Shown here: positions 1,586 through 63,229 of the stretch, piece by piece | How the letters are laid out: each line of letters opens with the position of its first letter | Numbering within the stretch: position 1 is the stretch's first letter | Origin: Epinephelus fuscoguttatus | Taxonomy: Eukaryota > Chordata > Actinopteri > Perciformes > Serranidae | Assembly (NCBI RefSeq): GCF_011397635.1 | Contig: NC_064755.1 | Location: 23,728,559 to 23,792,558, forward strand | Direction of reading: 5' to 3' | Length of the DNA: 64,000 nucleotides | The notes under the pieces: generated by a model | Seen by the model: only the letters and a program-made list of their open reading frames with translations | What the model was told of the DNA's origin: nothing | Databases searched by the model: none | Made by a program: the position numbers and the translations under genes

Positions 1586-1645
1586 CTGTGAGTGTGTCTC
1601 ATTGAAGCAGAGTGTGAGCAGCAGGAGGAGTGAGAAGAAGGCCAT
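1586..1645 (-). CDS. Lone signal-peptide first exon
   Basis: Twenty codons run from an ATG to CAG|GTAAGAATT, a strong donor, in phase 0. The peptide MAFFSLLLLLTLCFNETHSQ is a textbook signal peptide: a short n-region, an L-rich core and a polar end. No downstream exon is visible between here and the left edge. Two readings fit. It may be the first exon of another minus-strand gene, perhaps a tandem relative of the FN3 gene, whose own first exon also ends with Gln in phase 0. Or it may be an alternative first exon inside the FN3 gene, because the last visible FN3 exon (2365-2525) also ends in phase 0 and both could splice to the same next exon. The sequence cannot decide. The exon itself looks real; its gene assignment is open. 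Confidence 0.6.
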
Positions 1646-1960: not shown

Positions 1961-2364
1961 GGGAGAGCTGCTTAAGCAAATGAATCATTCAGGGTTGAGC
2001 TCATGAGGCCAACTTAATAAATAATGAGATCTATTACTCAACTCTGTGCTCTGTGTGCTCTGTGTGTGTGGTGTGTAAGGTTACATTTTGGGGGGTATCT
2101 GACACCTGGCAGCCGGGAGGAGACGGTATGGGGCGGGATTTGGTTGAATGGGAGGAGAGATAATGCACGTATGTTTGTGTAGTTTGGACAGTCAGTATCA
2201 TAACTCAGCTGCAAGTCCAGAGCTCTGCAATGCCAGTCTTCCTCCCCTGTTACTGCTCTTCATAACACTGCATTGATGATTTTTAGGTGAACTGCAGCGT
2301 CTGCAATGATTCAGTGAAAGACTGAGCCAGTGTGTGTGTTCACTGAGTGTGTGTGTGTGTGTAC

Positions 2365-5300
2365 CTGAATGAATCCATCACGTGCAGGGTGCACTGTCAC
2401 TTGTCCCTGGTTTGGTAGCAGGTTGACTTGATAATGATCCACACACCCAGCAGCCTGCTCCCAACGTAGCGAGAATGCACGTGCAGACACATTCACCACA
2501 CGCACTCCTCTTACACGGGCTGGCACTCATGAAGGACAGGAAAGGGAGAAATGGAGTCAGAGAGGTGGAGAAAGTTTCCGTAATTTAATGAAAAAGGTTG
2601 ATAAAGGCGGCTGATAATAATGGGGTGGTGACCGGTGCAGCCCTTGTAATATGGTCTACCTGTGGTTACAGTCAAAGAGGCAGCGCTCCCCGCTGTCATG
2701 CCTCTCACTCTCTCAGCGCTCACGTTGTAGCTGCAGCCGTCCACCAGGCCTGTAACCACGGCAACCCACTCCTCCTTGGGTACGGTGAGTGTGTTTGTGA
2801 CTGAGGCGTTGGCCACAGTGACTCTGTGAAAGTCAAACTCTCCAAACGCACTGTCCCAGCTCACAGAGACAGAAGAGGAGTTCATGTTGTCTAAATGAAG
2901 GGCACATAATCCTGCTGGGCCTGGAAAACAATGTTTTCAATTTTACAACAGTTTTTATCACTTAGGCCACAATTTAATTATTTATTTGTGTTACGAGGGC
3001 ATGATGCTCTAACTTAGAAATAACCAATAACTTCTCCATCCTGACAGGCCTGCCGTTTCCAAAAATACTGTACAGAATTTTGGCCTGTGTGTATGAGTGT
3101 TTCTTACGTGTGCTGAACTCTTTGTGGACTGCTTGACTGGTGTCGGAGCCCAGCACACTCTGAATGCTGACACCATAGTCTGACCCTGGGATCAAATCCC
3201 TGATCTCATAACGTGCGCCCTGGACAAGCACTTCAATCCATGATTTCCTGTCCACAGACTGCAGGCCAAAAACAAGCTGAGAAAAAAAAAAAGAAATCTT
3301 CAGAGTTCTGTTAAGGCTTTACAAAACCCAAGTGAAGTTTCAATTACTGGACGCAAAAACATGACGATTTTTTTTTGCTTTTCCAAGTCAGTATATCAAC
3401 TAATGTCTCTTTTTTATTTCTTTTAATGTAGGTTTGTGTTGTGCATGCATGTAATGTGCTTGGTCATTCTTCCTGGCCATGTCTCTATGGAGGTCATACA
3501 TCTTTAAAGGGTTGGTAACCAAATCTGTGGTGTGCCGACAATGGTTGCTAAGTAACCAACAGGTAAGTGCAGAACCTGATGCAAGTGGCCTCATTTGTCC
3601 TTGAAAAACATACAATTTTGAGAAAACCAATTGACACTGACACACATCATTATCTGTCTGGAAATGGCGTGGCAACGTATAATGCCTGCTTTCCTTCAGT
3701 GATTGTTATGTGGAACTAAACAGGCGCAGTAGTATACGTGTCTTACCTTGTACAACTCCACCTCTCCTGGTGGTGGTCTCCAGGTGACAAACACAGATGT
3801 CACTACCTGCTCTGAAAGAGTCACTTCCTGTGGCACCTCTGGAACTGGGACAAGATTACTATTAGAATGTGACACCATGTACTCACACATAATCATCACT
3901 GTCTTTGACTCTCCAGCGCGGGGGAATACTGGAGGCTAATTTTTACAGTAATATAAATAATTTCTTTGTGTAAACATGTGTAAAACTAGAGAAGTGCTCT
4001 CAGTAGAGTGCAGATCTCCACCAGGTGTGTTTGGGAGCATGTAAGCGGGGAGCAGGGGCTGCAGGGCAGGCTGTGTGTCCAACATGTGTGCATGAGTGTG
4101 GCGGAATGAAGGGGAGACAAAATGCAGGTTACATTGTCAAGTCTAACAAGAGTAGACAGGCTATATGAAGATAAATGTTGGACACAATGTGCAATAACAC
4201 CTCTCACTACCTTCCTCTCCCCTCCCAAGCAAAGAAGACTTGAATCTCACTCAACTGTCCCTCCCAGCTCCCTAACAGTCAATATGGTGGCAAAGACAAC
4301 TAAATTTGGGATTTTTTCATCTTGTATTGTGCCTAACTTTGGTGGATCATAACATATCAGGTATGAAATGAAAATAAGACCAGACTTTTCTTTGGATGTC
4401 AATTTTTGTGATACGACAATGGCTAAAATATGGCCTGCAACAGACTCAATAAAACTTATTTTATCATAGCCAATTGCTCAAAATGCCTTTTACTAAGTAA
4501 TTTTGTCCATCACTTGTGCCCCCTACCAACTCATTAAGAGGATCAAAGAGTCAGGAGTAAATCACCGCATGAAAGAGCAGTCAATAAAACTGTTTTTTCA
4601 AACACTGTGAATCACTGCAACCACGAGAGGTCCTTGAGCATGCAGTCATAAAAGTGCACAAACAATATTAGGCTAATGGGTCCAGTAGTTTGTGAGATTA
4701 CCTGTGGACAGACAGATATACACGTGCACATCCATGACTGACGCATTATCCTCTTCAAGCTCACCCCGAGCATAGATAACAATTAAAGTATAATCAGCAT
4801 TATGACTGTCCAACAGCTTTATGAGTAAAGTTTAAAGCCAAAGACACATCATCTCTCTTTCAGCTGGTCCCTTTATGCTCCACAGCTTGCACTCTAATTT
4901 TTATTTTGACAATGATTTATTTCAAACGACCGTCCTACTCTGACACAACATTGCAATATAATGTTAACAGTGAAGTGACCTAAGGCTGAAACTGAGGAGA
5001 GATAAAAAATAATTTCCTTTTTGTCTCTCATTGTTAACACGGACATCTGCACTCCTTCCAGAAATCTTACTGTCTTAATCTAATATGTATTTTAAATTGT
5101 ATTTGCACATTTCTGCTCTCTTCTGACTGTTCATTTCCTGCGACATTTTGTAATCCAAATAATTTTCTTTCTCCCCCTCGCTCCCTCCCACACACATGCA
5201 AATGTGGGCACAAACACGACTGATATTTGGTGCCAGATACTGCATGTCTTTCACTGTGTAACTTACTCGTATGGAGGATCACAGTGGCAGGATTACTCTT

Positions 5301-8300
5301 TCTTTCCCCGCTGGTGCTAATCACTTTAATTGTATAAAGACTTCCAGGAGCGAGGCCTTCAAAGCTGTAAGATCTGTGAACACACACAGCACACGGTGTT
5401 TTAAAGCACAAGCTCTGAGTAATCTGTGTTGCACTCAGTTGTCATCAAAGAAAGTTTAGATGTGGTGATTGGAATTCTAGTCTCACAAAACTGTAATAAT
5501 TTGTGCACTGCCTGTCAAGAGTGAGACTGACCTGGCCTCCTGATGAGAAATGATCAGCTCTTGGCTAGATGTTCTGTTTTTGATTGACAGGATGAGTCCG
5601 TTCGCAACTCCCTTGACCGTACTCCAACGAATGCATATGGATGATGTGGTTTTATTGACAAGAGACACCTCTGCTGGGCTGGGTGCTGGCATATAAAAAA
5701 AACATTACACGTAGTAGTCTGAATAAAAGAATATTGAGCAGTGTGAGTACATGTGTGTGTTTGTGTGTGTGCTTACCTGCAGTGATGTTAATGGTAACAG
5801 GGGAACTGTCTGTGAAGGACTCCTTCTCTGTTCGTACAGCAAAGTAGTAGAGTCTGCCCGGAGTCAGACTAGAAAACACTGCACTCTGACTGGACACCTT
5901 CTGCACCTGTAGCACACACAAGATATATCCAAAGAGCCTTATTATAATTCTCACAGTAACAGTATTAGTTAGAGGGCACGTTAATGTTTAATACATAAAA
6001 TCATGCTAACTACTGCTCACATGAATCTCAAGGAGAAAACCTGCATTTTTTATTTACCATGTATGAATGGTCACAGTTGAGGCAGACGACCTCATATCTG
6101 TGAGCGTGTCCTTGCGCAGGATCCCAAAGCAGCTCTATGGATGAATCCGTCACCACGCCTTCCCTCACTCTGTTTGGAGGAGCCAGACCTAAAATCACAA
6201 ACCATATCCCACAACACATACTGTAATTAATACTTTAACATACTGAAATTACTAATTCTCTTTGGTTGGGGATATTTTAAACACCTGGGGATTATGTGTT
6301 TATGCCTAATTTATAAAAAAGAGCTAAATCATTGCAGTAATGATGAAACTGATATGTTTAGAAGCCTTTACAAAAAAAGCAAACATCATATTAAAGGTCT
6401 GGTGTGTAGGATTTAAAGGCAAGTGGAGGTTGCAGAACTGAAACTTCTCCTGTGTGCAAAGCATGTAGGATAACTACTGTGGTCGATGTGAAAACACAAA
6501 AACCCCAAAACCCCAAAACTGGAATGGCCCTATCTAGAGCCAGTGTCTGGTTCATCTGTTCTGGGCTGTGGCAGAAACAGCATGGCGGACTCCATGGACA
6601 AGGACCAGCTTTGTATGTAGATATAAAAGCCTCATCCTAAGGTAATTAAAACACAACAATTCTTATTTTCAGGTGACTATAAGCTAGTGAAAACATATTT
6701 ATGATTATCATATATGATTTCTGCCAATAGCTGCCGCTAAATCTGACACAGTGGACCTTTACATTCTAATAAAACAACAGGATAAAAGACACCACATACA
6801 TATCTATGTAATTTTGTTTTCAAAACAGATTTAAAGATGATATTTAGGGCTTCAACTAAAGATTATTTTCATTGACAAAGACATCTTTTATTTAAGAAGC
6901 TTGAAATCAGCAAACATATGGCTTTTTAATAACAAAAATAGTTCTCAATTAATTTTCTGTTGATTGACTAATGGATTAATCAACTGATTGTTGTAGCTCT
7001 CATAAGATATTATCTACGGGCAACCCCAAAGACAGAAATTTACGTCCAATGTCTGAAAACATGGATGCTTGACACATATCCTCCTCCCGGCAGCACAGAA
7101 GATCTTTACAATCAGCACAGTGTCAAGGTGGGCACCCAAGATTAGTGTCACCAAGTCAGCATCTGACTTAAGTTAAAGCTAGAAAATAGTTTTTGCAGAA
7201 TATTGTGATGTCACAGTAAAGCTGACCTTTGTCCTTTTGGATATAAAACAAGATCTTCTCATCCTAATGTTCTATTTGACATCTGTGTGAAATGGTGTCA
7301 TAAATAGCATATGAATTTTTGAGTTATGGCCAAAAACAGTGAGGTCACAGTCATCTTGACTTTTGACCTTTGACCACTAAATTGTAATGAGTTCATTCTT
7401 GAGTCCAAGTGGATGTAAGTACCAAATTTGAGGAAACTCCCTCAAGACCTTCTTGAGATATTGCATTCACGAGAATGAGATGGATGCAAGGGCACAGTGA
7501 CTTTGACCTTTGACCTATAACCTATAACCACCAAAATCCAATCAGTTCATAATTGAATCCAAGGGGACATTTGTGCCAAATTTGAAAAAATTCCCTCAAG
7601 GCATTCTTTAAAGAGATGAAGATGTGAAAAAGTACTTTAAATTGATGCCAAATGAGGACAGCTAAAGTGGTGCAATCATGAAGAGAAAAAGTGATCAATA
7701 ACAGAGATCATTAAAGAGATAATTAAAGTGGAGATCAGTCCATATATTTATGCTGATACCTTCAAGTTAGAAGCATTTGTAATATGTCTGCTGCCACTGG
7801 CAATCCCACCTGTATGTGCATCAGTATGTACTAGTATCAGCAGAGGTTACTCACTTGTTCTGACGGGGCAGGTGTAGTAAGGTGGTCCCATCTGCTCCCG
7901 GCTTGTACTGTACACCCTGAGCTGCTGCTCTGATCCTGGACTGAGGTTGCCAACAGTTATGATATGAACACCGGCAGGGAGGGCGTACCAGTCGCATGTG
8001 TCCCCGCAAAATCCCTCACACACAGTGTCACACACTCCTGGACATACACACACTTTAACTCCGTCAACCAGCCCCAGCTGTGGACGCTGGATGTACAGCT
8101 GTGCGGAGTTTGTGCCCACTGAAAGAGGGACTGCCACCTGGACTGGCATTGGATCTACACATAGAGGGAGAAACAGAGACAAAGATAGATAATAAAATGA
8201 CTTGTATGGTAGATAATAATTTTCCAGTCCGTCTTTAAACAATAGTCAGGTGACTGTATGAACACTGAAACATGTTTTGCTTGCTGTAATCACTCCTTCT

Positions 8301-11300
8301 GTTCATACTGGTCATGGGGGACAAAACACAGTCCTCCTTCTGTCAGCTGTGTATTAAAGTTCATCTGAGGCTAATATGAGGCTTCAGCTTTGGTAAAAAT
8401 CAAGTTACAGACTGTTTAGTACAAAATACCCTCTTTTTCTTACTCTCCTTCCGCTGCAACTCAACAGGGAAGCACCGTCAGGGGGAGTTTTACTCTACAG
8501 GCTATTACTTTGGAAGATACCCACTGGCTACCTCCGACTACTGAGGCCTTGTTTAAGCTTCAGATAAAGTTTTGAATGCATTTGTGCACAAAGAGAGGAC
8601 TCTGGTTTTGTCTCCCAAAACTTCCATTGAACACACATTTGGAAGGAATCTCACGGCCAACATGAAGAGAAATGACTACAGCAAAAAAAGAATGATATCA
8701 CTGTTCAAATAGACACCTGATAATTGTTTTAAAACAGACTTGAGAACTTTTAATCTTATCCTTTAAAGCAGTGGTTCCCAACTTGTTTCCATAATTAATA
8801 TAATTCATATTACATTAAATGCAGAACAATAACATTAAAGAACAACTATTAAACTGTCTTATGGTATCTGCATAATACATTTTGTGTTAATCTTAGTAAT
8901 TGTCTGTGTACGTTCTCCCCATTGTGTTTAATTTGGTCTGATCAGCCACTATGTACATTGTTTTTTTGTTTCAACCTCTATTAAGGGCTCTATAACACCA
9001 GTTTTGTTATCCTTAGTCATTTGCTTTGTAAAATTTATTTTTTGGGAAAATAAAGCGACCTTCTTTGAACTTTAAACTTGTGTTTTTGTGCTTTGGCTCC
9101 TTGGTTCATGACAGGCAAGGGGCATAATTGCTTAGTAGATCCAATCAGAGCTGATCAGATCAGATCAATGGATGAGAGGAGCAGCTGCTATAGAGGCTAA
9201 CTTTTAGACCCAGTGCATTGAACGGTTAAGTTTCATTCCCACTGTGCCTGATGTTCTGCTGCTTTGTCTTTGCCCAGAGTATTCTCTGTGCTGCGAGAGT
9301 GTGGTGCAGTGAATAACCAGACAGGAGGCTATATATTCCAGCAGTGCTCCTGATGAATGGTCCAGCTCTTAAAACAGAAAATCAAAATGTGGCGACAGAT
9401 GTTTTCATCGTGGTGGGCTGCCACAAAAAAAAGGGATGTAAACCCTGACTGTAGTTTTCTCTACAGCAATATATGAAATGCTGGGATACAGGCCAACTGT
9501 ATATTTTAAAAAGCTTTCTTACACCCCTTAAAATCAAGAGGCACTAGTAAGCCCCTGTGAAGCTTTGGTGACCCTTAGGGGGGTCGGGACCCCCAGGTTG
9601 GGAACCAGTGCTTTAAAGGCAGTATTGTTGTTTCTCTTACCTGTTGTGTGTGTAACACTGGTCTTCTTGCTCCTGTCCTCTCCCCTCAGTGTGACAACTC
9701 CAACTTCATAAGTTTGACCTGGAGTAAATGTGCCCATATTAACACACACTGACTCATTTAACCAGTTTACACCAGGACTGGACTGGTTTGTCCACAGTGA
9801 GATGGGAGCAGGGTAAATGTGTGGGTGGGACGTGATGTAATAACCATCTGGTGGGTCATCTGGTGGATGATTCCAGCAGACTGTCAGATTTCCTGCTGTG
9901 CTGAATACCTCCAGACCACTGGGAGTCCTAACAGCTAAAGGGGTAAAAGAGGAGAATGTTAATTTTGTTGTCAGCTAATGTGGGTCAAAGGTAAGTTATC
10001 TGCATATTACTATTATGTATGTTTTTTTTGTTTGGACAATTACGTGATGTAAATTTTAGAACATCGCCAACTTATCGACTTTGTTTGACAAAATACATGA
10101 GCAAAGTTCAATTTATGCAAACTAGTAAGAACAGGCACAATCAGGTTTGCCTCTCCCTTGTGTTTCCTGTTTCCCCTTCCTAGTGTCTCACGTGTTTTTT
10201 TGGCGCGGCCTCCTGATTCCCTCCTCCTGCAAATCCTCCTGATTGCCAGCAGCTGCTGGACCTGCACACCTGAACCACATCTACAATTAAGCTCGTAAGA
10301 TACAGACATCTAGGCCAACTTCTGGATTTTGAACACGTTGTCTTTTTGGACATCAATTCAAACTTTGTTCTGTGTCTCAGGTTCACCACGCAAGCCTCAA
10401 CCGTAACCCGCCACATCCAGCTTCATTCATGACTTTTGCCTCCGGATTCAGACTGCTCTGCCTTCAACTAGTCTGTCTGCTCCGCTTCACCATTCCCAGC
10501 CCACCTCAGCCATCATTTCATTCAAACCTTCAGCTCCACTTCTTCAAACTACAATAAACTGTCTCAAACCATTCAGTTTCCTGGTTGTGTTTGCATTTGG
10601 GTCCTAAGTTGAACTGCCACAACAACTGCATAGACAGCTCACTTTTATGAAAGGTCGACCTTTCCAGCAGTGAAAGTGCAATCAGTGCTAATGGTCACAA
10701 ATGTATCACCAGTCACATTAACAGCACAATGGCTTCACAGCCAAAGTCCATTCAAATCTCAGTTTGCATTGTACTGGCTGATTGAATAAGGCAATGACGG
10801 AGAATTAGTGCATTGTCACTGTAAAAATTTTCATTTGTATATTTTGCCTGAATTTTCAAACAATACCTTTCCAGATTTCCCAAAAACTGAAATGAATCAT
10901 TTTGACATTTTGACATGTCATAGTAAGAAAAGCACAGGTGTAAATAATAAAATGAATGATGGCTGAATTCCATTTAATTGTGTGTTTCAGGGTTCTGGTA
11001 TTGTTCACGCTGGCTTGCTGTCACACAGTCATGGCTTACTGGGACACTTGAACAGAGCAGGGCCATCACTAATGTTATTAGCTACTATGACAAGTCAAAA
11101 TGGCTGCTGTGAAAAAGGCCTGTTACATGCTTACCAGTCTGTGCAGTCACAAGCGCTTGTCCGCAGCTCTCTATCCCGTGCTGGGTGACTGTGTAAACTT
11201 CAACACTGTATTTCCTGTAAGACTCCAGCCCTCCAATCACAGCGGTGTATGACTGCAGCCCACCAGTCTCAGACAATCTGGAGATGTTGGTCATCCCAAG

Positions 11301-14300
11301 TATCCTCTGTTGTCTTGAAGACATGTCCACATAGCGCACAACAAATGTCCATCCAACCCTTGACTGTGCATCCGTCAGCATCCAGTGAACAGCAATCTGA
11401 CTGACGGTAATGTGGCTGATGGTGACATTTTGAGGAGGAAGAGGTCCTGTGAGAAGAAAAAACAAACATTTGCGGTACATCTGTTAGAATAAGATATGGC
11501 TTGCGTAACTTGTGTGTGTGACAGGTTGTCAGCAGACTCACTAGTGTACGCAGTCCGTGTTTGTCCTAAGATCCAGGTGGCACCAGCAGGGTGAGAGACT
11601 CTGAGGGTGAAAGAGTAGACGCTCCCTGGAGACAAACCTGCCACAGTTACCCCCCTGGAGGAGAGGGAAATTGGGACCCTGACAACTTTTTTTATACTTC
11701 TCTGGCTCTGTATCCCCTTTATGTCCTCTGACTTCCTGCTTCTATCTTCTTCACCTTGACCCCACTCTCCATCTGCCTCCTCTTGGTACTGGAGGCATAT
11801 CCCAAAGGATGAGAGGCTGAGAGAGTTCAAGGATGAGAGGTCACTCCAGCGAAGCTCTACCTGTTGCTCTGTCACCTGAACCAGGTCAAAGGAGAACGAG
11901 GCAGGGGCTGGAGGGACTGTGGAAGAGGGAGAAGAAGAAGAAATTGTATGGTTTGACTTAACTAGTAAGTGTTTTGCATTACTTCTTTGCCCTTAGATTA
12001 AGAAATAATGGATAAAGGGTTATGCACAGTAAATAATGTGGTTAATAAAGATACATTATTCAAGTTATTTACTCTGGTACTGGCAGATGAAGGGTAAGGG
12101 GATGTTACAGAAGAAAGGAGTGAGAAAGTATCCTGCTCCTGTAGCATTCCTTTGAAAGGCAAAACAGTCTGTCTGATTGGCTGGCAGTAATGACATAGTG
12201 TTTGTCAGGTTATAGGCTGAGCCATCAGACCAGACAGGATGTCCCTCCTCCTGCAGGGGTGACAAAAGAGAGGTATTATGCACTGCACTCAATATATACA
12301 CATGACAGACCCAACCAGCTCACTGTCATTAAAGTGAAAGTTTCAAAAACAAAACTCCTCTTTAGGGAGTAACTGCTGCCGTGGGGCTTTTCCTGTTTAG
12401 AAAGGAAACTTCTTCTCCAGAAAATTACTTTCCAGTGATTCAGCAGTGGATTACCATTACACAGTCTTACAGTCTTATGTCTGCACTGCCTGAAATTGAG
12501 TCTAAAACCCTCTGAGGTCTTATTAGGTCTATGCTTTTGTATATACCACAATACGTGAGGACCTCCCTGCAGGCTTCGGCCAATGCAGCCCGAGAGAAAA
12601 GTGTCATTTTGGCTAGATAGGCTGCTTTTGAAATGTTATAATAATCTGTTAAATCTGTATTTTCTTTAACTACTCAATCATAAACAAAATCCTACAAAGG
12701 GTATTAAAACTTTATGCCTCATTACTTAAGTATACTCATTAAACAAACATCTATTTGGCCATTTCCTTTTTTAATGACTTGCAATTTTCATTTTTCACTA
12801 TGCAAAACAATGAGTGAACATCAATCCAGTGCACAAATACAACTCACATCCTAACCCACCCTCCCTCCTTACCCAGTGTAATACCCAGAACATGAGGGAC
12901 AAACGACAATTCATCAATAATGTGACTTCATATAAAGAAAATCAGTAGAAAATAAATACATGAGTTAAGCAAATACATTAATCCTCAGAATAGATGGGGA
13001 CTTTTAAGAACGTAAAAACATACAATCCACCTGACAGTACTTGTGATTCAAATACTTCCACTGTACTCTTACTCTTGTGCAGTATTTGTAATTTCCTATA
13101 TGTAGGTTCCTTTACACATAGAGTCTAATGCCATGCACACTACAGGAGTAGACTTTAGTGTCGAAAGTGTCCTGCAGCGTTTGTGTGACAAAATGTCGTG
13201 CAGGAATGTTAAACTACACTGCATGATATTTTTAAATCTACTGTCTGCAGGGGCATGTGTCTTGACACTATATATGTACCAGTGTAAGAACAAGTGGCGG
13301 CATATTGTTTGTGATGGAACAGAATTTTATTCATTATGCCCTGTCATGTCTCTCTTTGGTTAATAATGTGTGTAGTATATTCATGATTTGCGAGCCACTC
13401 TATAGGTAGGATGACCCCTCTGGGTGACGGGTGGGACTAGTATGTTTTGTTGTTGTGATGGACTATATGTCGATCATGTGATCCAAATGATTTGCATGAT
13501 ATAAGATAAGAATTGCAAGTCATAAAAAAAAATCTACTTTCTGCAGTTCACACTCTACCAATTCCACCATATCATACAGGACCACATAATGCAAGATTTT
13601 GAGTCTTGCAAGACAGAATAAGCAGTGTTTTGTAAATATTTAATCAAAAAGGTTTTCTTGACAAATTCCTTTTTAAATTACTAACTATAAAGTTATTCAT
13701 GAATATTCATGAGAATTCTCAAATGTGATCCATTGTGAGAAAATGTTAATAAATAATATATAAATGTGCACATTCTCAAGGAAACATTAGGTATTCTGAC
13801 GATGTAAATGGAAAGGCACAATACAAAGTAATTATTTATTATGCCTCTGACTGATAGGATGAGAAGAAAATATTTTATATTCCTAAGTGCCACTCCTTGA
13901 AATGTTTCTGTAATTAGGCTACCTGCTGGTCAGTAAGTCCGGTCCACAACAGCAGCAGGTTGTTGTGGCTCAGCAGGTGAGAGGATATAAAAAGCGCATC
14001 TTCCAGGGTCTTCAGATCAGCCAGGTGACTTCCAGCTGCCAGATTTTTGCAGCTGTGCTGGGCATTGCTCCAGGTCAACCCTGTCTTTCTCACAGTGTAG
14101 CAGCTTCTTCCATTGGCCAACCAGTCAGTAGGGCACTGAGCTGAAGACAGAAATTATCAGCAACTAACACCGGCAGATTCTCTGCTGCCTGCAGTTGGTT
14201 TTAAAATTAATGATAAAGTTGTGGTTATGTAATCCTGATGTGTACAATACCTGTTTCCATGCCAAAGCTGAGTCCTTGCTTTATCATCATATTCAGGTGT

Positions 14301-16329
14301 TTTAGGAATGTGATCACCACGACTTTGGCCTTGAAGCGTGTACCAGGGTGGAGACCTCTCACTGCGTACTTAGAGTTTTCCTCCGATGAGTTTATGTTTA
14401 AGATGTGTGTGACAGATTGTGTGTGAGTGTCGTAAAGACTCAAGGTGGATAGCTGTTGTTGTTTGTGAGGTTTCCACGTGAGGAGAGCAGTAGTCGTCGT
14501 GCTGTATACATGGAAGGAGGACAGGGAGACTGGGGCTGGACACAAATACAGAGGGGAAGGAGCACAGACTACATGAAAGATGTTAACACCATGAGCATTA
14601 TACCAAACACTATTTAAGTATGTTCATTTTCTCCATCAGGGCTGTGGTATTCAGAGTTCATGGACACTCACTGAAGTGAAAAGTCTTTGCCGCAATAGTC
14701 GTATCATTTCTGCTGGCTCTCAGTGTGATGTTATATCCTCTCGGGTCCTCGACCAACTGCAGTGAGATTTTGCAGTCAGGGGAGCATGCTGAATGATCAA
14801 TGGGATCCACATACACCTGCAGAGATGGGATTATTAATTTAGCTCCCTAACTACTGTAAATAAGTTGAACAAGAGTACATCTGCATTATCTCCTGGACCA
14901 ATATTCTCACCAGATGGTTACTTGCAGTCCTGCAGGTGACTGTGTAGGTGTCTGAATCTCTAGTGGAAGGGAAGGACTGGAACACAACTTCAACCTCAAC
15001 AGGGTTTAAATGCTTCTCACAGGTCAGGAGGACCACCTGAGAAAGAGGAAAATGACATGTGTCACAGAAGCCAAATGTACTTTGAGGTCCAGTGTGTAGG
15101 ATTAAGGGGCCTATAATGGCAGAACTTGTATATAATACTCATAACTACATTTTCATTAGTTCATAATCGCCTGGAAATGAGAACTGTTTCGATTCGTTAC
15201 CTACTGGCTGGGACAAGATGTCAAAATGATGTTAGAAAGATGTTGGACTCAGGTTGACAATATCTTATGAATGTTAACATTATTTTTGCAGACTTTAGGT
15301 TTTGGTCTCCGTACATCCCGACTAAATGACGGTATTCTATGTCGAGATGATGTTGACATGAGACATTTGAAGAATGTCGAATTTTGGTTACTTGACAACA
15401 CAAATCAAAACCAAAATATCAACGCCAGTTTTCTACATCAATTGATGGTGGGATTATACACTGTCCTGACATTGAATTCAGGTCAACTGACGTCACAACC
15501 TGGATTCAACCAAATTTTGACGTCTAAAGACATTGGTGGTCAGCTGGGCTTAAAATGAGCCATTAATATCTACATAAGACGAGGATCCTTCTACAAAGTC
15601 CGACATGTTGTTGCTACAGTAACCCAGAACGCTGGCTGTAGACATGGCAAGCCACATTTTCGTGTCAGCCACCGTAATTCTCCTACACGCAATCTGCAAC
15701 CTCACTGCGAGATGCCACTAAATCAGGCGCTTGCACAGACAGACCCCAGGTGGTAATCAGGCACCTGCCGTTATGGCTGCTGATTAAATGTCTTTTTTTA
15801 AAATATGGTACATGGCATCAATTCTAAATTAAAAGCGTGTTGTAATGTCCGCAAACTGCATTTGAGTTCTAAATCTGCGAGAACGCACAAGCCCCTGCTC
15901 CTCACTCTTCACCTTCCCTCGTCACAGTCACCACAGAGAACAGACGCAGCTCAAGTGCCCAGTGGAGTGGCATCCATGTCTCCTTGACCTGCCTTCATCG
16001 GTGACAGCCTGCCAGGTAATGAAAGTGGTTGTCCTAAGCCTTGACATTGTTTTTCACTGATGTAAAATTAAACCATTCATGGGTGTATGGGGTTTGAAAT
16101 AACTAAATACGTAAAAGTATGTGATGGGTGCCCTTTTTTCGCATGAGCACCTGCTCCCTGAAATGTCTGTGCACTGCCCTGCACTAAATCCTACACACAG
16201 GAGCTTTAAATACGATTACAATACACCTGTGAAGACAGATAAACATGATACACAGCAGAAGAGAACAGCAGGCCTTTCTCTTACCTGGCATAAAGTAGCA
16301 AGTAACCACAGACGCTCTGTTCCACCCAT
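2365..16329 (-). CDS. FN3-array protein with embedded C-type lectin-like domain; 3' end not in window
   Basis: Eighteen exons join in phase to 1,163 codons: 16285-16329, 14911-15036, 14672-14816, 14251-14535, 13923-14140, 12073-12250, 11542-11916, 11135-11446, 9641-9934, 7855-8154, 6058-6188, 5777-5906, 5532-5685, 5267-5373, 3747-3844, 3108-3276, 2660-2920, 2365-2525. Order: signal peptide (residues 1-15), a four-Cys region coded by two exons (16-105), FN3 (106-200), a C-type-lectin-like domain (201-332), then about nine FN3 domains. The first four after the lectin domain are single-exon and several later ones are split in two. Domain borders are phase 1, as in class III receptor tyrosine phosphatases (PTPRB/H/J/O/Q). 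The last visible FN3 is cut in half with a phase 0 donor, so more exons must follow; no membrane segment or phosphatase domain is in view. Position beside otogelin suggests PTPRQ kinship, but the lectin domain is not part of PTPRQ as I know it. A soluble FN3/lectin protein is the alternative. Confidence 0.85.
3845..5266. other. Intron of the FN3 gene, no exon seen
   Basis: Flanking exons are phase compatible (1 to 1), so no exon is required here, although a symmetric FN3 exon pair could be missed. Part of it (about 4.3-4.75 kb) reads like old dispersed-repeat sequence ending in cagacagatata, but I cannot name the family. Confidence 0.5.
6393..6764. mobile_element. Short inverted-repeat element, GGTCCAGTGTGTAGGATT family, copy 1
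   Basis: It begins aaaggtctggtgtgtagga and ends aaatctgacacagtggacct, which are imperfect inverted repeats of each other. Inside are the fragments agccagtgtctggttcatc and catggcggactccatgg. A longer copy of the same family is at 15.09-16.21 kb. Both are non-coding and lie in introns of the FN3 gene. Confidence 0.7.
7200..7620. repeat. Diverged tandem repeat, unit about 145-150 bp
   Basis: Repeated landmarks are (g)gtcaca-gt near 7210, 7350 and 7493, tgacctttgac-like strings, gagtccaagtgga / gaatccaagggga, and caaatttgaggaaactccctcaag / caaatttgaaaaaattccctcaag. The first unit is the most diverged. This fits a common fish intronic repeat; no coding potential. Confidence 0.65.
7855..8154 (-). 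other. FN3-like exon with a six-cysteine insert
   Basis: The single exon (phase 1 to phase 1) has FN3 hallmarks: a PVQVAVPLSVGTNSAQL start and NLSPGSEQQLRVYS near its end. Between them lies the cysteine cluster CVCPGVCDTVCEGFCGDTC, six cysteines in 19 residues, followed by WYALPAG. A further Cys is in PPYYTCPV. Ordinary FN3 domains have no such cluster. The reading frame is certain because both flanking junctions are in phase. Confidence 0.8.
8769..9610. mobile_element. Non-autonomous hAT-like element with 8-bp target duplication
   Basis: Ends are CAGTGGTTCCCAAC at the left and, read inward from the right, CACTGGTTCCCAAC (13 of 14 match). The element is flanked on both sides by the exact 8-bp duplication CTTTAAAG (8761-8768 and 9611-9618), the duplication length typical of hAT elements. 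The 842-bp interior has no transposase frame. It lies in the FN3-gene intron only about 22 bases beyond the donor of exon 9641-9934. Related ends occur at 56.7-57.0 and 60.5 kb. Confidence 0.8.
10040..10630. mobile_element. Possible retroelement fragment (LTR-like)
   Basis: Pyrimidine-rich sequence holds an aataaa (in acaataaactgtctc near 10552) followed by ggttgtgtttgcatttgggt, a style I associate with ends of fish retroelements. No reverse transcriptase frame and no clear terminal boundaries are visible, so the family is unassigned. It lies in an FN3-gene intron. Confidence 0.3.
10915..11100. mobile_element. Palindromic-ended short element, copy A
   Basis: The left end gtcatagtaagaaaagcaca and the right end agctactatgac are inverted repeats. 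The interior carries ggtattgttcacgctggctt and actgggacacttgaacagag, shared with copies near 27.0 and 61.2 kb. The right end lies about 35 bases from the donor of FN3 exon 11135-11446. Confidence 0.7.
12073..14140 (-). other. C-type lectin-like domain coded by two exons
   Basis: Exons 13923-14140 and 12073-12250 make about 131 residues. The CPTDWLANGRSCY opening gives the long-form first disulfide pair. WSNAQHSC, a WTGL core in place of WIGL, and a final FFCNIPLPFICQYQ supply the rest of the fold. The sugar and calcium signatures EPN or QPD and WND are absent: the loop after WSDGSAYNL has no such triplet, and CFAF follows. So the fold is clear, but calcium-dependent sugar binding is unlikely. 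The domain sits between FN3 domains and is bounded by phase 1 introns, so it is a shufflable module. Confidence 0.88.
12251..13922. other. Intron splitting the lectin-like domain
   Basis: AT-rich, with no exon-like frame and no repeat I can name. Flanking exons join in phase 0 within the lectin-like fold. Confidence 0.6.
15089..16213. mobile_element. GGTCCAGTGTGTAGGATT family, copy 2, interrupted by a nested insertion
   Basis: It begins ggtccagtgtgtaggatta and ends aatcctacacacaggagctt (inverted). Recognisable internal blocks are cataactacattttcattag, tctacataagacgaggatcc and ttctcctacacgcaatctgc. Between about 15200 and 15549 the family sequence is broken by about 350 bp of unrelated repeat-like DNA (atgttgacatgagacattt, ttgacgtctaaagacattgg). 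The outer element fills most of intron 1 of the FN3 gene. Confidence 0.65.
16285..16329 (-). CDS. Exon 1 of the FN3/lectin gene, short signal peptide
   Basis: ATG at 16329-16327 follows in-frame TGA codons. The exon reads MGGTERLWLLATLCQ and ends CAG|GTAAGAG in phase 0, matching exon 2, which starts Val-Val-Leu-Leu-Thr-Cys at 15036. The hydrophobic core is short (WLLATLC) but continues into VVLL across the junction, which makes a plausible signal peptide. I chose this start because no other upstream ATG joins exon 2 in frame. Confidence 0.6.
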
Positions 16330-17387: not shown

Positions 17388-17393
17388 TTTATT
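17388..17393 (-). terminator. Probable poly(A) signal of otog
   Basis: AATAAA on the minus strand (TTTATT on the plus strand), about 550 bases beyond the TAA stop at 17941. It is the first exact AATAAA I see downstream of that stop. Confidence 0.5.
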
Positions 17394-26000: not shown

Positions 26001-29000
26001 AGGGTCAACTGTAAGGAATGATAGGGAAAAAAGAGAAGAGACTGTACTCACCGTTCGTCTGATGGAGTTTACGCTCTACAAAGAAAACAAAACATTTCAC
26101 AAAAAATATGGTTTTCAGATGTCTTTTTTTCAGACACAGTTCATATTTAATTTTTTGTATGTTACCTGGCTGGTCGGACATTTCTCAACAGTGCCAATAA
26201 TCGTCTCTCTGGGCAGGTTAACCAGGATGTAGGATCCGTTATCATACAAGGCCACGTTGTTGCCATCAAATGTGATAACTCGCAGGTCTGACATCACAGT
26301 ACAGCGACCTGGCAAAAGCATCAGTGACATCAAACACACATCGGTGCAACAAATTCTCATCACTACACATGCCTTTTACTGAATCACTGGGAAAATCTGA
26401 TTTTTAATGTTAACAACCACGCTTACAGGGGCACTGCCACAGTGGACAGCAGGGGTCTGTGTTGATGAGGATGGGCAGGCCCAGCAGACTGCACTGGGGC
26501 TGGGTGGTGTTGTAGCGACAGTGTAGAGAGGAGTTGTGAAGCAGCAGCTCTCCATTGAAACAGATCAGCTCAACGCACTCATCAATGCGGTAGGAGTACG
26601 GAGGCTGTGGAGACAAAGACACACAGTTTGCTTTTACAAGGCTTGTTTACACATCACAGCACATCTTAATAGCCATCTGCAGAGTTTTTTGCATCAGTAA
26701 ACACAAATATTTGCGTTTTTATATATTGAGCTGTTCTTTTCCAGTCTCCAAGTCTTCCCATTACATAGTGCCTACCTGTACTGTATATACAGACTGTTAT
26801 GGATTCATACCTGTGGTAACAGTTTCCATATTGCTGATATAAAAGTATTTTACAAGTAGCGCATAAAACATTTCATGACTTATACAACATTTCTAAGAGT
26901 GGAGCAAACCTTTTTCACTGATGTGTTTTCACAGTCACACTAATTAAAGCAAAGCTGTCAATATAATGAATGATGACCGCATTTAATTAAGCCGGTGTGG
27001 TTTTAAGTCTTGGTATTGTTCATGCTGACTCACTGTCACACTGTCATGGCATACTGGGACACTTGAATAGAGCAGAAGCATTGTTAATGTTATTAGTAAT
27101 ACCTGCACGTTTCAAGCAAGTCAAAATGTCTGTGGTAAAAAAAGACAAGCCTGTACTGAAATAATCACTTTAATGGTAAATTCATTCATGTGAGTAATCA
27201 ATTACATACTACACCTAGCAGAACTGTCCCAATTTATCAAGTTCAGTAAACAAATTTATCTTCAAGATGCTTATATGCAGGTTCATGAAAAGTGTGTTTG
27301 TGGCCGTGTACTGAACTTTAACTACAACACTTACTGTGCATGGGGTAGTGGGCCAGATGAATGGCTGTGTGGTTGTCGTTTCCTCTGTCACAGGAGAGGT
27401 GTCAGGGCTTGGGATTACTTCTGTGGTTACTGGCTCAGTAGTGGGCTCAATGGTTGTAGGAAGTGGTGCTGTGGTTGTCACCACAACTGTTGAGGTGTCT
27501 GTTGGAGTGGTGGTCGCTGTGGCGACCATTGTAGGCGAAGGTGTAGGCTGAGTAGTGGTTGTGGTTTCAGTGGTGGTTTCAGGGACAGGGGTGGTGGAGG
27601 TGAGGGCTGTTGTGATGGCTGTGGTGGGTGGTGGCGGAGTGGTGGGGGAGGTTAGTGGAGGTGGGGTGGAGGTTACTGGGGGTGTTGGCGATGGTGTTGA
27701 GGGTGTGATAACGGTGGTGGAGGTAGGAATGGAGGGTGAGGTGGTAGAAGAAATAGTGGTAGGGGGTGGAGGAGAGGAAGTTGAGGGCACTGTTGTGGCC
27801 TCAGTGGATACAGTGGAGGGTGTTGCTGTTGTGCTGGTGGTTGTTGTGACCCCTGTGGTTATCGTAGTTTGAGTGGGGGTCATCTCAGTCGTGCTGAGAG
27901 TGGTCGTCTCTGGCAGTGTTGAGGGAGTGAGAGTGGTAGACATAACAGTGGTGGGAGGGGCAGTTGTAGATGGAGATGTGGTGAGCGGAGTGGTGACGCG
28001 CTCAGTTGCTGATGTAGTACTGGGAGTAGCGGGAGTGGTAGTGGTGGTTGTGGTTGTCGTGGGCCTGCCAGTAGTGGAGGAGGTGGTAGTAGTTGCTCTG
28101 GTGGTGGTTGTGGTGGTGGTCGTAGTGGATGTGGTTGTTGTAGTGGTGGTTGTGATTCTAGGCCTTGCAGGGGTAGTAGTAGTCGTCGTAGTGGTTGTTG
28201 TGGTTGTAGTTGAAGTAGTTGGTGGAGCTGTTGTAGTTCTGTTGGACCGCGTCACATATGCAAACGGTGTTGGAGTTGGGGGAAGGGACACACCTAGTAC
28301 AGACAATTAATATTGTAAGTACATATTTTATATTGAGTTTTGAAAATGCATTTAAGTTTTTTGGCGCCATTGGACAAAAATTCTATAATAGCCTTTCAGC
28401 ACATTGTAATTCAAATGGTCGAGTTCTGCACCTCTATCCTGTGACTGGAGACTTTTGCCAATCACAAGTCATTTCAGAGGCTGCTCCTATTGGCTGTTCA
28501 ACAAACACAGATGCGTGTGCACATGCCTTCAGATGATGAAAGCCTGATTCAACGGCAGAAAATCCTACAGAAGAAGTTGCTATTCCAGCGCTGGCAACAA
28601 CGGCCTATACTGCAGAGCAACCCATAAAAGGGAAGACGGACTTTTCAAAAAGAGGGTCTTAAGCCCTATTAGCACGGGACTAGTATTACCAGGGAGCCTC
28701 ATGTGATTTAGAAACTACCCTCCCATGTCTGTGTACCATGCGGCACATTTACATAAGCCTGTCTGTATTTTACTCAAATTCACTGTCATTATCCCCCGGA
28801 TATAATGCGCACAGTAATTTGTATCTCCACTCTCCACAGAAACACTTCACAGCACCACTAGCAGTGATTTAAAGTATTAATCTCCTTTTTTATTCTTTTA
28901 TTAAATGTTGGTAAACAAAAATAACAGATTCTGACACATATTGTCACATGTCATCCATCTCATCATCTGTCGAGATTCTCTCTTCTGACGGGTTTGAGCC

Positions 29001-52639: not shown

Positions 52640-57554
<4,915 letters not shown>

Positions 57555-61633: not shown

Positions 61634-63229
61634 CAGTGGTGGAAAAAAGTTTTCGGACACCCTTAAAATTTTACACAATCTCAAATATTATCATGAAATA
61701 TTTGTGGAAAAATCTTTTTTGTATTTCAAAAGGTGTGGCTGCATTAGACTGATACAAACAAATACAAATTATATTGTTTTGTTTATTGTTTACAAGAAAG
61801 ACTAACAAAACTAAATTCTTGACAGTTTCAATATGTCAGTTCTCAACATTGTCGGTATCAAAGTCAACAAATAACAGAGAATGTGTTCAAAACTGAACAA
61901 AAAATAAATAAACCATCACATCATCAAATTAATATTTAGTAGTCCTGCCACTGGCACGTAGTAGAGCTCTAATCCTGGCTGGCATGTTCCCCACGAGCCT
62001 TTCACACTGTTGAGGGGTAATCTTGTCCCATTCTTCTTGAATTACTGCTTTTAATTCTTCTAAATTCTTTGGTTTATGCTTTGAAACAGACCTTTTGATA
62101 ATCCACCACAGATTTTCAATGGGGCTCATGTCCGGGGACTGAGCTGGCCACTCTAAGACCTGGATACTGTGCTCCTGCAGCCAAGTTCTACTGGCCTTGG
62201 ATGTGTGGCAAGGGGCATTATCTTGTTGAAACATCCGGTTTTTACCTCGACGGAACAGTGCACGCGCAGAAGGGAGCATGTGGGTTTCGAGAATGGTACA
62301 ATACTTGGTAGAGTTCAATGTGCCATCACAGACAGTGAGATGACCAACACCAGCAGCACTCATGCATCCCCAAACCATGATGATGCCTCCACCATGCTTG
62401 ACAGTAGGTACTGTACATGCTGGAGATAATGCTTCGCCTGGCCTTCTGCGTACCCTCACATTAGTAGGAGGAAGATAAAGCTGGAAACTGGACTCATCTG
62501 TCCAGTTCTTGTGTGCCTGGGCCCAACGACGCCGGGCTAACCTCTGTCTCTCATTGATCAGGGGCTTCTTGATAGCCTTGTAGGACCTTAAGCCATGATC
62601 TAAAAGTAGGCCACGTACAGTGCGGGTGGAACACTGGACACCAGTTTGGTTTGACCACTGCTGCTGAAGCTCCTGTGATGTCATTCGGCGGTTTTGCCTG
62701 CACATGCGGATCAGGATGCGGTCATTTCTTGCTGAAGAAACCCTTGGACGCCCAGATCTTGGTTTGTCTTCCAAGCTGTTGGTTCATCTGTATTTCTGCA
62801 GAGTGTATCCAACTGCTGAAGGACTGCATCTGCACTTCCTGGCTATCTGGCAGCTGTACCCTTCCTGGCTGAGAATCTTTATCTTCAGGCGTGTTTCCTG
62901 CGTTAGGTTCCTTGTTTTAGCCATTTTTGTGTCTGAAGAACTTTCAAATGTGCTGGCTTTATGTAGACACGAAGCTTGGCAACAAAAATTGTGTCTTTTA
63001 ATAAAAAGAACGACCTTCATCACTGGTACCAAAATGACCCAATACTCAAAATTTCTTATGTATTTTTATGGAACCAATCAATTTTAAGTTTTTAATGGCT
63101 TTTTTAGGATTTATTTAGTATTTTGGCTGTGACTGTACTAAAAGAAATTGCACTTGAAGACCTAAGAGTGATTCTTAATGCAATATTTCACAAATGCATG
63201 GGGTGTCCGAAAACTTTTTTCCACCACTG
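61634..63229 (-). mobile_element. Tc1-type DNA transposon, nearly intact
   Basis: The element is 1,596 bp with perfect 29-bp terminal inverted repeats (CAGTGGTGGAAAAAAG... at 61634 and its complement ending at 63229), flanked by the TA target duplication at 61632-61633 and 63230-63231. The transposase frame is on the minus strand. Perfect ends suggest a fairly young insertion. It lies in the intergenic space to the right of the synaptotagmin gene. Confidence 0.93.
61929..62924 (-). pseudogene. Tc1 transposase with one in-frame stop
   Basis: Reading starts MAKTRNLTQETRLKIKILSQ at 62924 and runs in one frame to the stop at 61929, about 330 residues, interrupted only by a TGA at 62784-62786 (YTLQKYR then TNSLEDKPRSGRP). 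It has two helix-turn-helix regions, the GRPR hook (SGRPRVS), and a DD34E catalytic triad: D in WTDESSF, D in QQDNAPCHTS, and E 34 residues later in DMSPIENLWW. Tc1 transposases cut and paste at TA dinucleotides in the nucleus. The single stop probably makes this copy non-autonomous, although its ends could still be moved by a related enzyme. Confidence 0.9.

What the first reader, a model, noticed from the sequence alone, without database searches (positions are those of the whole stretch)
2365..16329. FN3-array receptor-like gene with a lectin-like domain inserted between FN3 domains
The order signal peptide, Cys-containing domain, FN3, C-type-lectin-like, then about nine FN3 domains is read from 18 exons in unbroken phase. 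Class III receptor phosphatases (PTPRB, H, J, O, Q) are FN3 arrays with phase 1 borders, but none that I know has a lectin domain. The lectin module lacks EPN/QPD and WND, so a protein ligand is more likely than a sugar. Lying against otogelin, it could be an otolith or hair-bundle matrix receptor.
Basis: partly seen in the sequence, partly recalled or inferred. Interest (0 to 1): 0.75.

Follow-up and report, generated by a model that had tools for sequence, protein, structure and literature searches.

The report
Lectin-bearing front half of fish PTPRQ
In a fish, the gene for the hair-bundle protein PTPRQ appears to carry a long extra front part with a lectin-like domain, next to a second, internal start that matches the shorter human protein; such a domain was listed once for pufferfish in 2004.

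Summary
Eighteen exons (16329 to 2365, minus) join in one frame to 1,161 residues: signal peptide, a 4-Cys domain, FN3, C-type-lectin-like domain (CTLD), eight whole FN3-type domains and half of another. The gene does not end there. Left of the window lies PTPRQ on the same strand, colinear with human residues 17-2290, with TM exon and WPE loop. Its first body exon, 4.3 kb beyond the last window exon, is the missing second half of that FN3: apart 20.1 and 14.6 bits, together 37.5 (cut-off 25), phase 0 on both sides. Between them sits a short signal-peptide exon (1586-1645), also phase 0, resembling the recalled human start. So this is most likely PTPRQ with two starts: a short, human-like form and a long form adding the FN3/CTLD part. 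Four of the added FN3s have the short B-C loop reported for PTPRB; the body has PTPRQ's longer loop. Human PTPRQ, as recalled, begins with the same orphan half-FN3, which suggests an old long form. Precedent: a 2004 Fugu survey lists PTP-GMC1 (PTPRQ, recalled) among CTLD proteins, undiscussed. Transcripts and function are untested.

The parts
16285..16329 (-). e1: ATG and first part of a signal peptide (MGGTERLWLLATLCQ|), donor GTAAGA, phase 0
   Evidence: weakest exon: poor ATG context, two out-of-frame upstream ATGs
14911..15036 (-). e2: rest of signal peptide and first half of 4-Cys domain
   Evidence: no Pfam match
14672..14816 (-). e3: second half of 4-Cys domain
14251..14535 (-). e4: FN3
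   Evidence: Pfam fn3 25.5 bits, cut-off 25
13923..14140 (-). e5: first half of C-type-lectin-like domain
   Evidence: Lectin_C E 2e-11 together with e6
12073..12250 (-). e6: second half of C-type-lectin-like domain
11542..11916 (-). e7: FN3-like with a long charged insert
   Evidence: fn3 18.8 bits, below cut-off
11135..11446 (-). e8: FN3
   Evidence: best fn3 stretch 461-550 of the whole model; not scanned alone
9641..9934 (-). e9: FN3
   Evidence: in the nine-domain HMM, so that match is not independent; not scanned alone by Pfam
7855..8154 (-). e10: Cys-rich FN3-like domain (7 Cys)
   Evidence: no Pfam match; it was itself in the HMM
6058..6188 (-). e11: first half of FN3, loop code W4G4Y, phase-0 donor
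5777..5906 (-). e12: second half of FN3
5532..5685 (-). e13: first half of FN3, phase-2 donor
   Evidence: no Pfam match alone
5267..5373 (-). e14: second half of FN3
3747..3844 (-). e15: first half of FN3, W4G4Y
3108..3276 (-). e16: second half of FN3
2660..2920 (-). e17: FN3, W4G4H
   Evidence: fn3 31.0 bits
2365..2519 (-). e18: FIRST HALF of an FN3 (fn3 3-44 of 84), W4G4Y, phase-0 donor CAG|GTACAC before a CA repeat; its second half is the first body exon of PTPRQ, left of the window (C4:23726493-23726607; L009 7935-8049, minus)
1586..1645 (-). candidate internal first exon of short PTPRQ: MAFFSLLLLLTLCFNETHSQ|, donor CAG|GTAAGA, phase 0

Best explanation
The 18 exons are the upstream 5' part of fish PTPRQ. 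The gene has two starts on one strand: e1 (long form, about 1,160 residues more: 4-Cys domain, FN3, CTLD, further FN3s) and the signal-peptide exon at 1586-1645 (short form, like human PTPRQ). Both lead in phase 0 to the same first body exon; only the long form completes the first FN3. Shown: exons, frames, domains, complementary halves, PTPRQ downstream. Inferred: that both forms are transcribed, that e1 is the true start, and that the CTLD sits at the far tip of an FN3 rod on hair bundles and binds a protein partner there (otolithic matrix or a neighbouring stereocilium) while the inner end keeps the lipid-phosphatase domain.
For: Half-domain fit: e18 fn3 3-44, recalled human start 46-81 of 84; e18 + real first body exon 37.5 bits against 20.1 and 14.6 alone and 16.7 for the short start; phases match. 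As a separate gene it would lack a 3' end: no AATAAA or ATTAAA on the minus strand from 2400 down to 846, no further FN3 exon in the window left of e18. Signal exon: one of 2 hits on both strands of the window at hydrophobicity 2.4; Markov-3 expectation at 2.6 is 0.033 per 64-kb strand, 60 runs; thresholds chosen after seeing it. Order syt1, otogelin family, this, PTPRQ. Intron codes 1:1, 1:0:1 and 1:2:1, three of the four that the paper gives for PTPRQ. Fugu PTP-GMC1 is listed as a CTLD protein.
Against: No transcript. The e18 donor is weak (0.36 by an approximate, recalled PWM, against 7.04 for the signal exon; the other model donors run from -0.61 to 7.04), so splicing to PTPRQ may be rare. 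At thresholds 2.8 and 3.0 the signal exon is not found by my scan, and at 2.4 an unrelated place (33877-33824) scores almost as well. Each half of the joined FN3 is below the fn3 cut-off alone, and I ran no control with other halves. Loop codes differ between the two blocks, as a fusion of two once separate genes would give. The Fugu survey lists a second protein, CFN3 (CTLD and FN3), which could be this block as a gene of its own.
Confidence: 0.83

Rival explanations
1. Two genes: e1-e18 is a separate gene (perhaps secreted) whose 3' end I have missed, and PTPRQ starts at 1645.
For: Internal signal exon with a strong donor; weak e18 donor; change of loop code at the border; Fugu CFN3 is listed apart from PTP-GMC1.
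Against: e18 is only half an FN3 and its other half is PTPRQ's first body exon in the right phase; no AATAAA or ATTAAA between 2365 and the signal exon.
Confidence: 0.12
2. The block is used only by intron retention: e18 reads through its weak donor and gives a soluble N-terminal fragment.
For: Read-through adds VHTHTHSVNTHTGSVFH and a stop; weak donor.
Against: No AATAAA or ATTAAA before position 845; ends inside an FN3.
Confidence: 0.03
3. Assembly artefact or dead exons beside PTPRQ.
For: One genome only; no relative to compare.
Against: Eighteen exons open and spliceable; no run of 5 or more N between the window's left end and -62000; same strand as PTPRQ; an independent Fugu listing.
Confidence: 0.02

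Closest known systems
PTPRQ (R3 receptor phosphatase of hair bundles)
   Same: Colinear over human residues 17-2290 (2,038 covered), TM exon, WPE loop, W7G3-4Y loops, next to an otogelin-family gene.
   Different: About 1,160 extra N-terminal residues with a CTLD. Human PTPRQ: 45 exons, 2,299 aa (PMC11956499, passage; my recalled copy has 2,290). The recalled human sequence has no counterpart of the block (best hit there E 0.34).
Fugu PTP-GMC1 as listed by Zelensky and Gready 2004 (PMC514892)
   Same: A fish PTPRQ (name equation recalled) listed as CTLD-containing.
   Different: Named once in the main text, in a table; no domain order or start exons in the parts that I read; sequence not compared.
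PTPRB, and another R3 gene of this genome (C4:17.374-17.397 Mb, not identified further)
   Same: Short B-C loops: 13 W4G4Y-type matches in that gene, 4 (W4G4Y/H) in the block.
   Different: WPD, not WPE, in that gene; no close copy of this CTLD found elsewhere in the genome.
Mannose-receptor-family CTLDs (LY75, PLA2R, MRC1)
   Same: Among the best PDB sequence matches of the CTLD.
   Different: General CTLD similarity; this gene has an FN3 array and, by the join, a phosphatase.

Membership tests
PTPRQ | Single PTP domain with WPE in the WPD loop | tested here: met
   TSWPEHGVPES left of the window; PF00102 matches at C4:23692232-23694543
PTPRQ | FN3s with W7G4Y/W7G3Y loops | tested here: inconclusive
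   Body met: 17 pattern hits (W or F, G or S allowed), 15 of them FN3s by eye, 0 short loops. N-terminal block not met: 4 W4G4Y/H, 0 W7, the other FN3s of the block neither
PTPRQ | Mixture of FN3 intron codes | tested here: met
   1:1, 1:0:1, 1:2:1 in the block; 1:1:1 not seen
PTPRQ | N-terminal block spliced to the body in mRNA | not testable with these tools
   Only frame, phase and domain completion tested
PTPRQ | Inositol-lipid phosphatase activity; hair-bundle location | not tested
   Known for mammals and chick; nothing here
PTPRB | W4G4Y loops with a WPD phosphatase at the PTPRB locus | tested here: not met
   Loops partly met (4 of the block's FN3s), but the PTP that follows is WPE and the neighbours are an otogelin-family gene and syt1; the 4-Cys domain does not match recalled PTPRB domain 1 (18% of 2,000 shuffles reach the score)
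C-type-lectin-like domain | CTLD by profile, Cys pattern | tested here: met
   Lectin_C 45.0 bits, cut-off 22.6
Sugar-binding C-type lectin | EPN/QPD and WND calcium-site motifs | tested here: not met
   Read from the sequence; motifs recalled

The most novel reading that the evidence does not exclude
The long, CTLD-tipped PTPRQ is the ancestral form in bony vertebrates, and an old internal start lets hair cells switch between a long adhesive and a short form; tetrapods then lost or hid the upstream exons, leaving human PTPRQ to begin with an orphan half-FN3. Remnants or live 5' exons could still lie between OTOGL and PTPRQ in birds or mammals.
Probability: 0.4. Interest if true: 0.75.

Novelty: new variant of a known kind. 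Interest (0 to 1): 0.5.

Why it matters
PTPRQ is a deafness gene and its protein is associated with the shaft connectors of hair bundles; the passages that I saw name no outer ligand. A domain of ligand-binding type at its tip in fish, a two-start gene structure, and an explanation for the half-FN3 at the start of the recalled human protein give concrete tests: splice-junction reads, exon knock-out, and a look at the OTOGL-PTPRQ interval in other vertebrates.

Tried and rejected
Relatives elsewhere: one viral-contig scan with 341 residues of the model (4-Cys domain to the start of e7), 6 pattern matches, none confirmed. Own genome (the tool scores only its best candidates): CTLD matched its own two exons (99 and 95% identity); the other 9 of 11 rows are all on C17 (27-35%, E 1.2e-8 or worse). 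Signal peptide + 4-Cys domain + e4 matched only themselves (4 rows). The e11-e18 block matched its own exons (8 of 40 rows); the other 32 rows were E 2.3e-4 or worse, 21-39% identity. So no second copy was found.

4-Cys domain as PTPRB domain 1: rejected. In the same call e13-e14 scored 39 against that recalled PTPRB domain (0 of 500 shuffles reach it); I make nothing of it, as both are FN3s and nine such comparisons were run.

Fold of e10: single-sequence model useless (pLDDT 37.5), no fold search made. I did not fold the CTLD or the 4-Cys domain, because they span two exons and the tool asks for letters read straight from DNA.

Literature: 10 of 10 searches used. PTPRQ + C-type lectin + fibronectin type III gave 3 papers, which by title and start of abstract do not treat this. 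A sea-urchin lectin-bearing receptor PTP that I recall (PTPRLec) was not found. Nayak 2011 is not held; I saw only a sentence about it in PMC4065360 (three chick isoforms).

Full report
What is there. On the minus strand of the window, 18 exons from 16329 to 2365 join into one open frame of 1,161 residues, with AG at 17 of 17 internal acceptors and GT at 18 of 18 donors. Pfam gives fn3 in 9 stretches (E 1.8e-58) and a C-type-lectin-like domain for e5+e6 (E 2e-11). Order: signal peptide (e1 and start of e2), a 4-Cys domain without Pfam match (e2-e3), FN3 (e4), CTLD (e5-e6), then e7, e8, e9, e10, e11-12, e13-14, e15-16, e17 as whole FN3 or FN3-like domains and e18 as half of one. e10 has no Pfam match and e7 is below the cut-off, so 'FN3' there rests on spacing, the PG motif and an HMM that included them. 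The CTLD has six Cys and lacks the recalled sugar motifs.

What follows it. In the leftmost 2.4 kb of the window lies a short exon (1586-1645) that reads MAFFSLLLLLTLCFNETHSQ and ends in phase 0 with a strong donor. My scan for Kozak ATG, hydrophobic stretch and in-frame donor finds 2 such places on both strands of the window at threshold 2.4 (this one, 2.69, and 33877-33824, 2.62) and none at 2.8 or 3.0. A third-order Markov model of the window gives 0.033 hits per strand at 2.6, 0.017 in phase 0, over 60 runs. The thresholds were set after I had seen the exon, and the second place shows that chance or other genes can give one.

I then fetched 80 kb to the left. It holds PTPRQ on the same strand: a chain of 32 colinear tblastn pieces covering 2,038 of 2,290 residues of human PTPRQ as I recall it, from residue 17 to the end; a TM exon, by eye; SAGVGRTG and the WPE loop. 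Chicote et al. 2017 (PMC5336234; Results read whole) report WPE for PTPRQ alone among the proteins that they analysed. Pfam PTP matches lie there too. The good fit of the recalled probe is itself a check of the recall. I did not splice the whole body by hand.

The join. The first body exon (window coordinates -1951 to -2065, that is C4:23726607-23726493) has acceptor TTTTCACAG|GCC, phase 0 in and phase 1 out, and runs on in frame into the next exon. It holds the second half of an FN3. e18 holds the first half: fn3 positions 3-44 of 84. Joined they score 37.5 bits (positions 3-72), over the cut-off of 25; apart 20.1 and 14.6; with the short signal exon 16.7. Any first half of an FN3 might do similarly with any second half; I ran no such control, so the weight lies on position, strand and phase together. 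The recalled human protein, too, starts with its signal peptide followed at once by fn3 positions 46-81: a half domain without its front. The simplest reading is that PTPRQ once had, and in this fish still has, an upstream part, and that the human-type start is an internal one.

Two kinds of FN3. Chicote et al. find nine residues between W and Y in most PTPRB FN3s (W4G4Y) and twelve in most of PTPRQ (W7G4Y, W7G3Y). By patterns that I wrote after seeing the sequences, the upstream block has 4 short loops (e11, e15, e17, e18) and 0 long ones; its other FN3s fit neither. The PTPRQ body has 0 short and 17 long, of which 2 are low-complexity and not FN3. On the opposite strand the same patterns gave 0 and 0 in the block, 0 and 1 in the body. 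Another R3 gene of this genome, with WPD, has 13 short and 3 long matches, one of the 3 low-complexity. So the long protein would be a mosaic: an R3 block that ends in PTPRB-like loops, in front of a PTPRQ block. The intron codes of the block (1:1, 1:0:1, 1:2:1) are three of the four that the paper gives for PTPRQ.

Neighbourhood. To the right lie a gene with otogelin-type domains (of 9 segments scanned, 4 match TIL, 1 VWD and 1 DAN; one TIL is below its cut-off; 3 match nothing) and a synaptotagmin-1 gene (PDB best hit synaptotagmin-1, E 2.5e-115). A tilapia paper places SYT1A, PAWR, PPP1R12A and RPS16 next to MRF4 in teleosts, with PTPRQ beside MRF4 in frog, chicken, mouse and human (PMC11727018, passages). 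That this window is the other post-duplication copy (syt1b-otogl-ptprq) is my inference, and so is OTOGL rather than OTOG.

Precedent. Zelensky and Gready 2004 list 'PTP-GMC1, protein-tyrosine phosphatase expressed by glomerular mesangial cells' and 'CFN3, protein with CTLD and FN3 domains' among Fugu CTLD proteins (PMC514892; outline, passages, section 11 part 1 and sections 24 and 31 read; each name occurs once in the main text). That PTP-GMC1 is PTPRQ I recall; PMC11349657 cites the 1998 mesangial-cell paper for PTPRQ (passages). I did not see the Fugu sequence. So a CTLD in fish PTPRQ is in print as a table line; the two starts, the half-domain fit and the loop mosaic I did not find in the papers and searches named here.

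How it would work (inferred). PTPRQ is associated with hair-bundle shaft connectors, though it was said to be unknown whether it forms them (PMC4281357, passages; PMC9900141, passages), and three isoforms were reported in chick hair cells, changing with age (sentence in PMC4065360). Human PTPRQ is said to have 18 FN3s (PMC11349657, passage). A long form would put a protein-binding CTLD near the far end of a rod of more than 20 FN3s, the phosphatase staying inside the cell. The weak e18 donor beside a CA repeat and the strong donor of the internal start fit regulated use of the two forms. None of this has been tested.

Limits.

Noticed in passing
window 2340-2364: A CA repeat directly follows the weak e18 donor on the minus strand; CA repeats near 5' splice sites can regulate splicing (recalled).
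   Followed up: no
window 52815-55655, minus: Synaptotagmin-1-like gene (C2 domain pieces; best PDB match synaptotagmin-1).
   Followed up: partly
window 17944 to about 47766, minus: Otogelin-type gene (TIL, VWD, DAN matches); AATAAA at 17393, about 1 kb upstream of e1.
   Followed up: partly
window 61929-62774, minus: Tc1/mariner-type transposase reading frame (HTH_Tnp_Tc3_2, DDE_3).
   Followed up: no
window 27215-28306, minus: 363-aa open frame within the span of the otogelin-type gene, without Pfam match.
   Followed up: no
G000 C4:17374649-17392320, + (L024-L026): Another R3 phosphatase gene with 13 short-loop FN3 matches, six of them with the same 17-residue stretch, as in recent exon duplication.
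   Followed up: no
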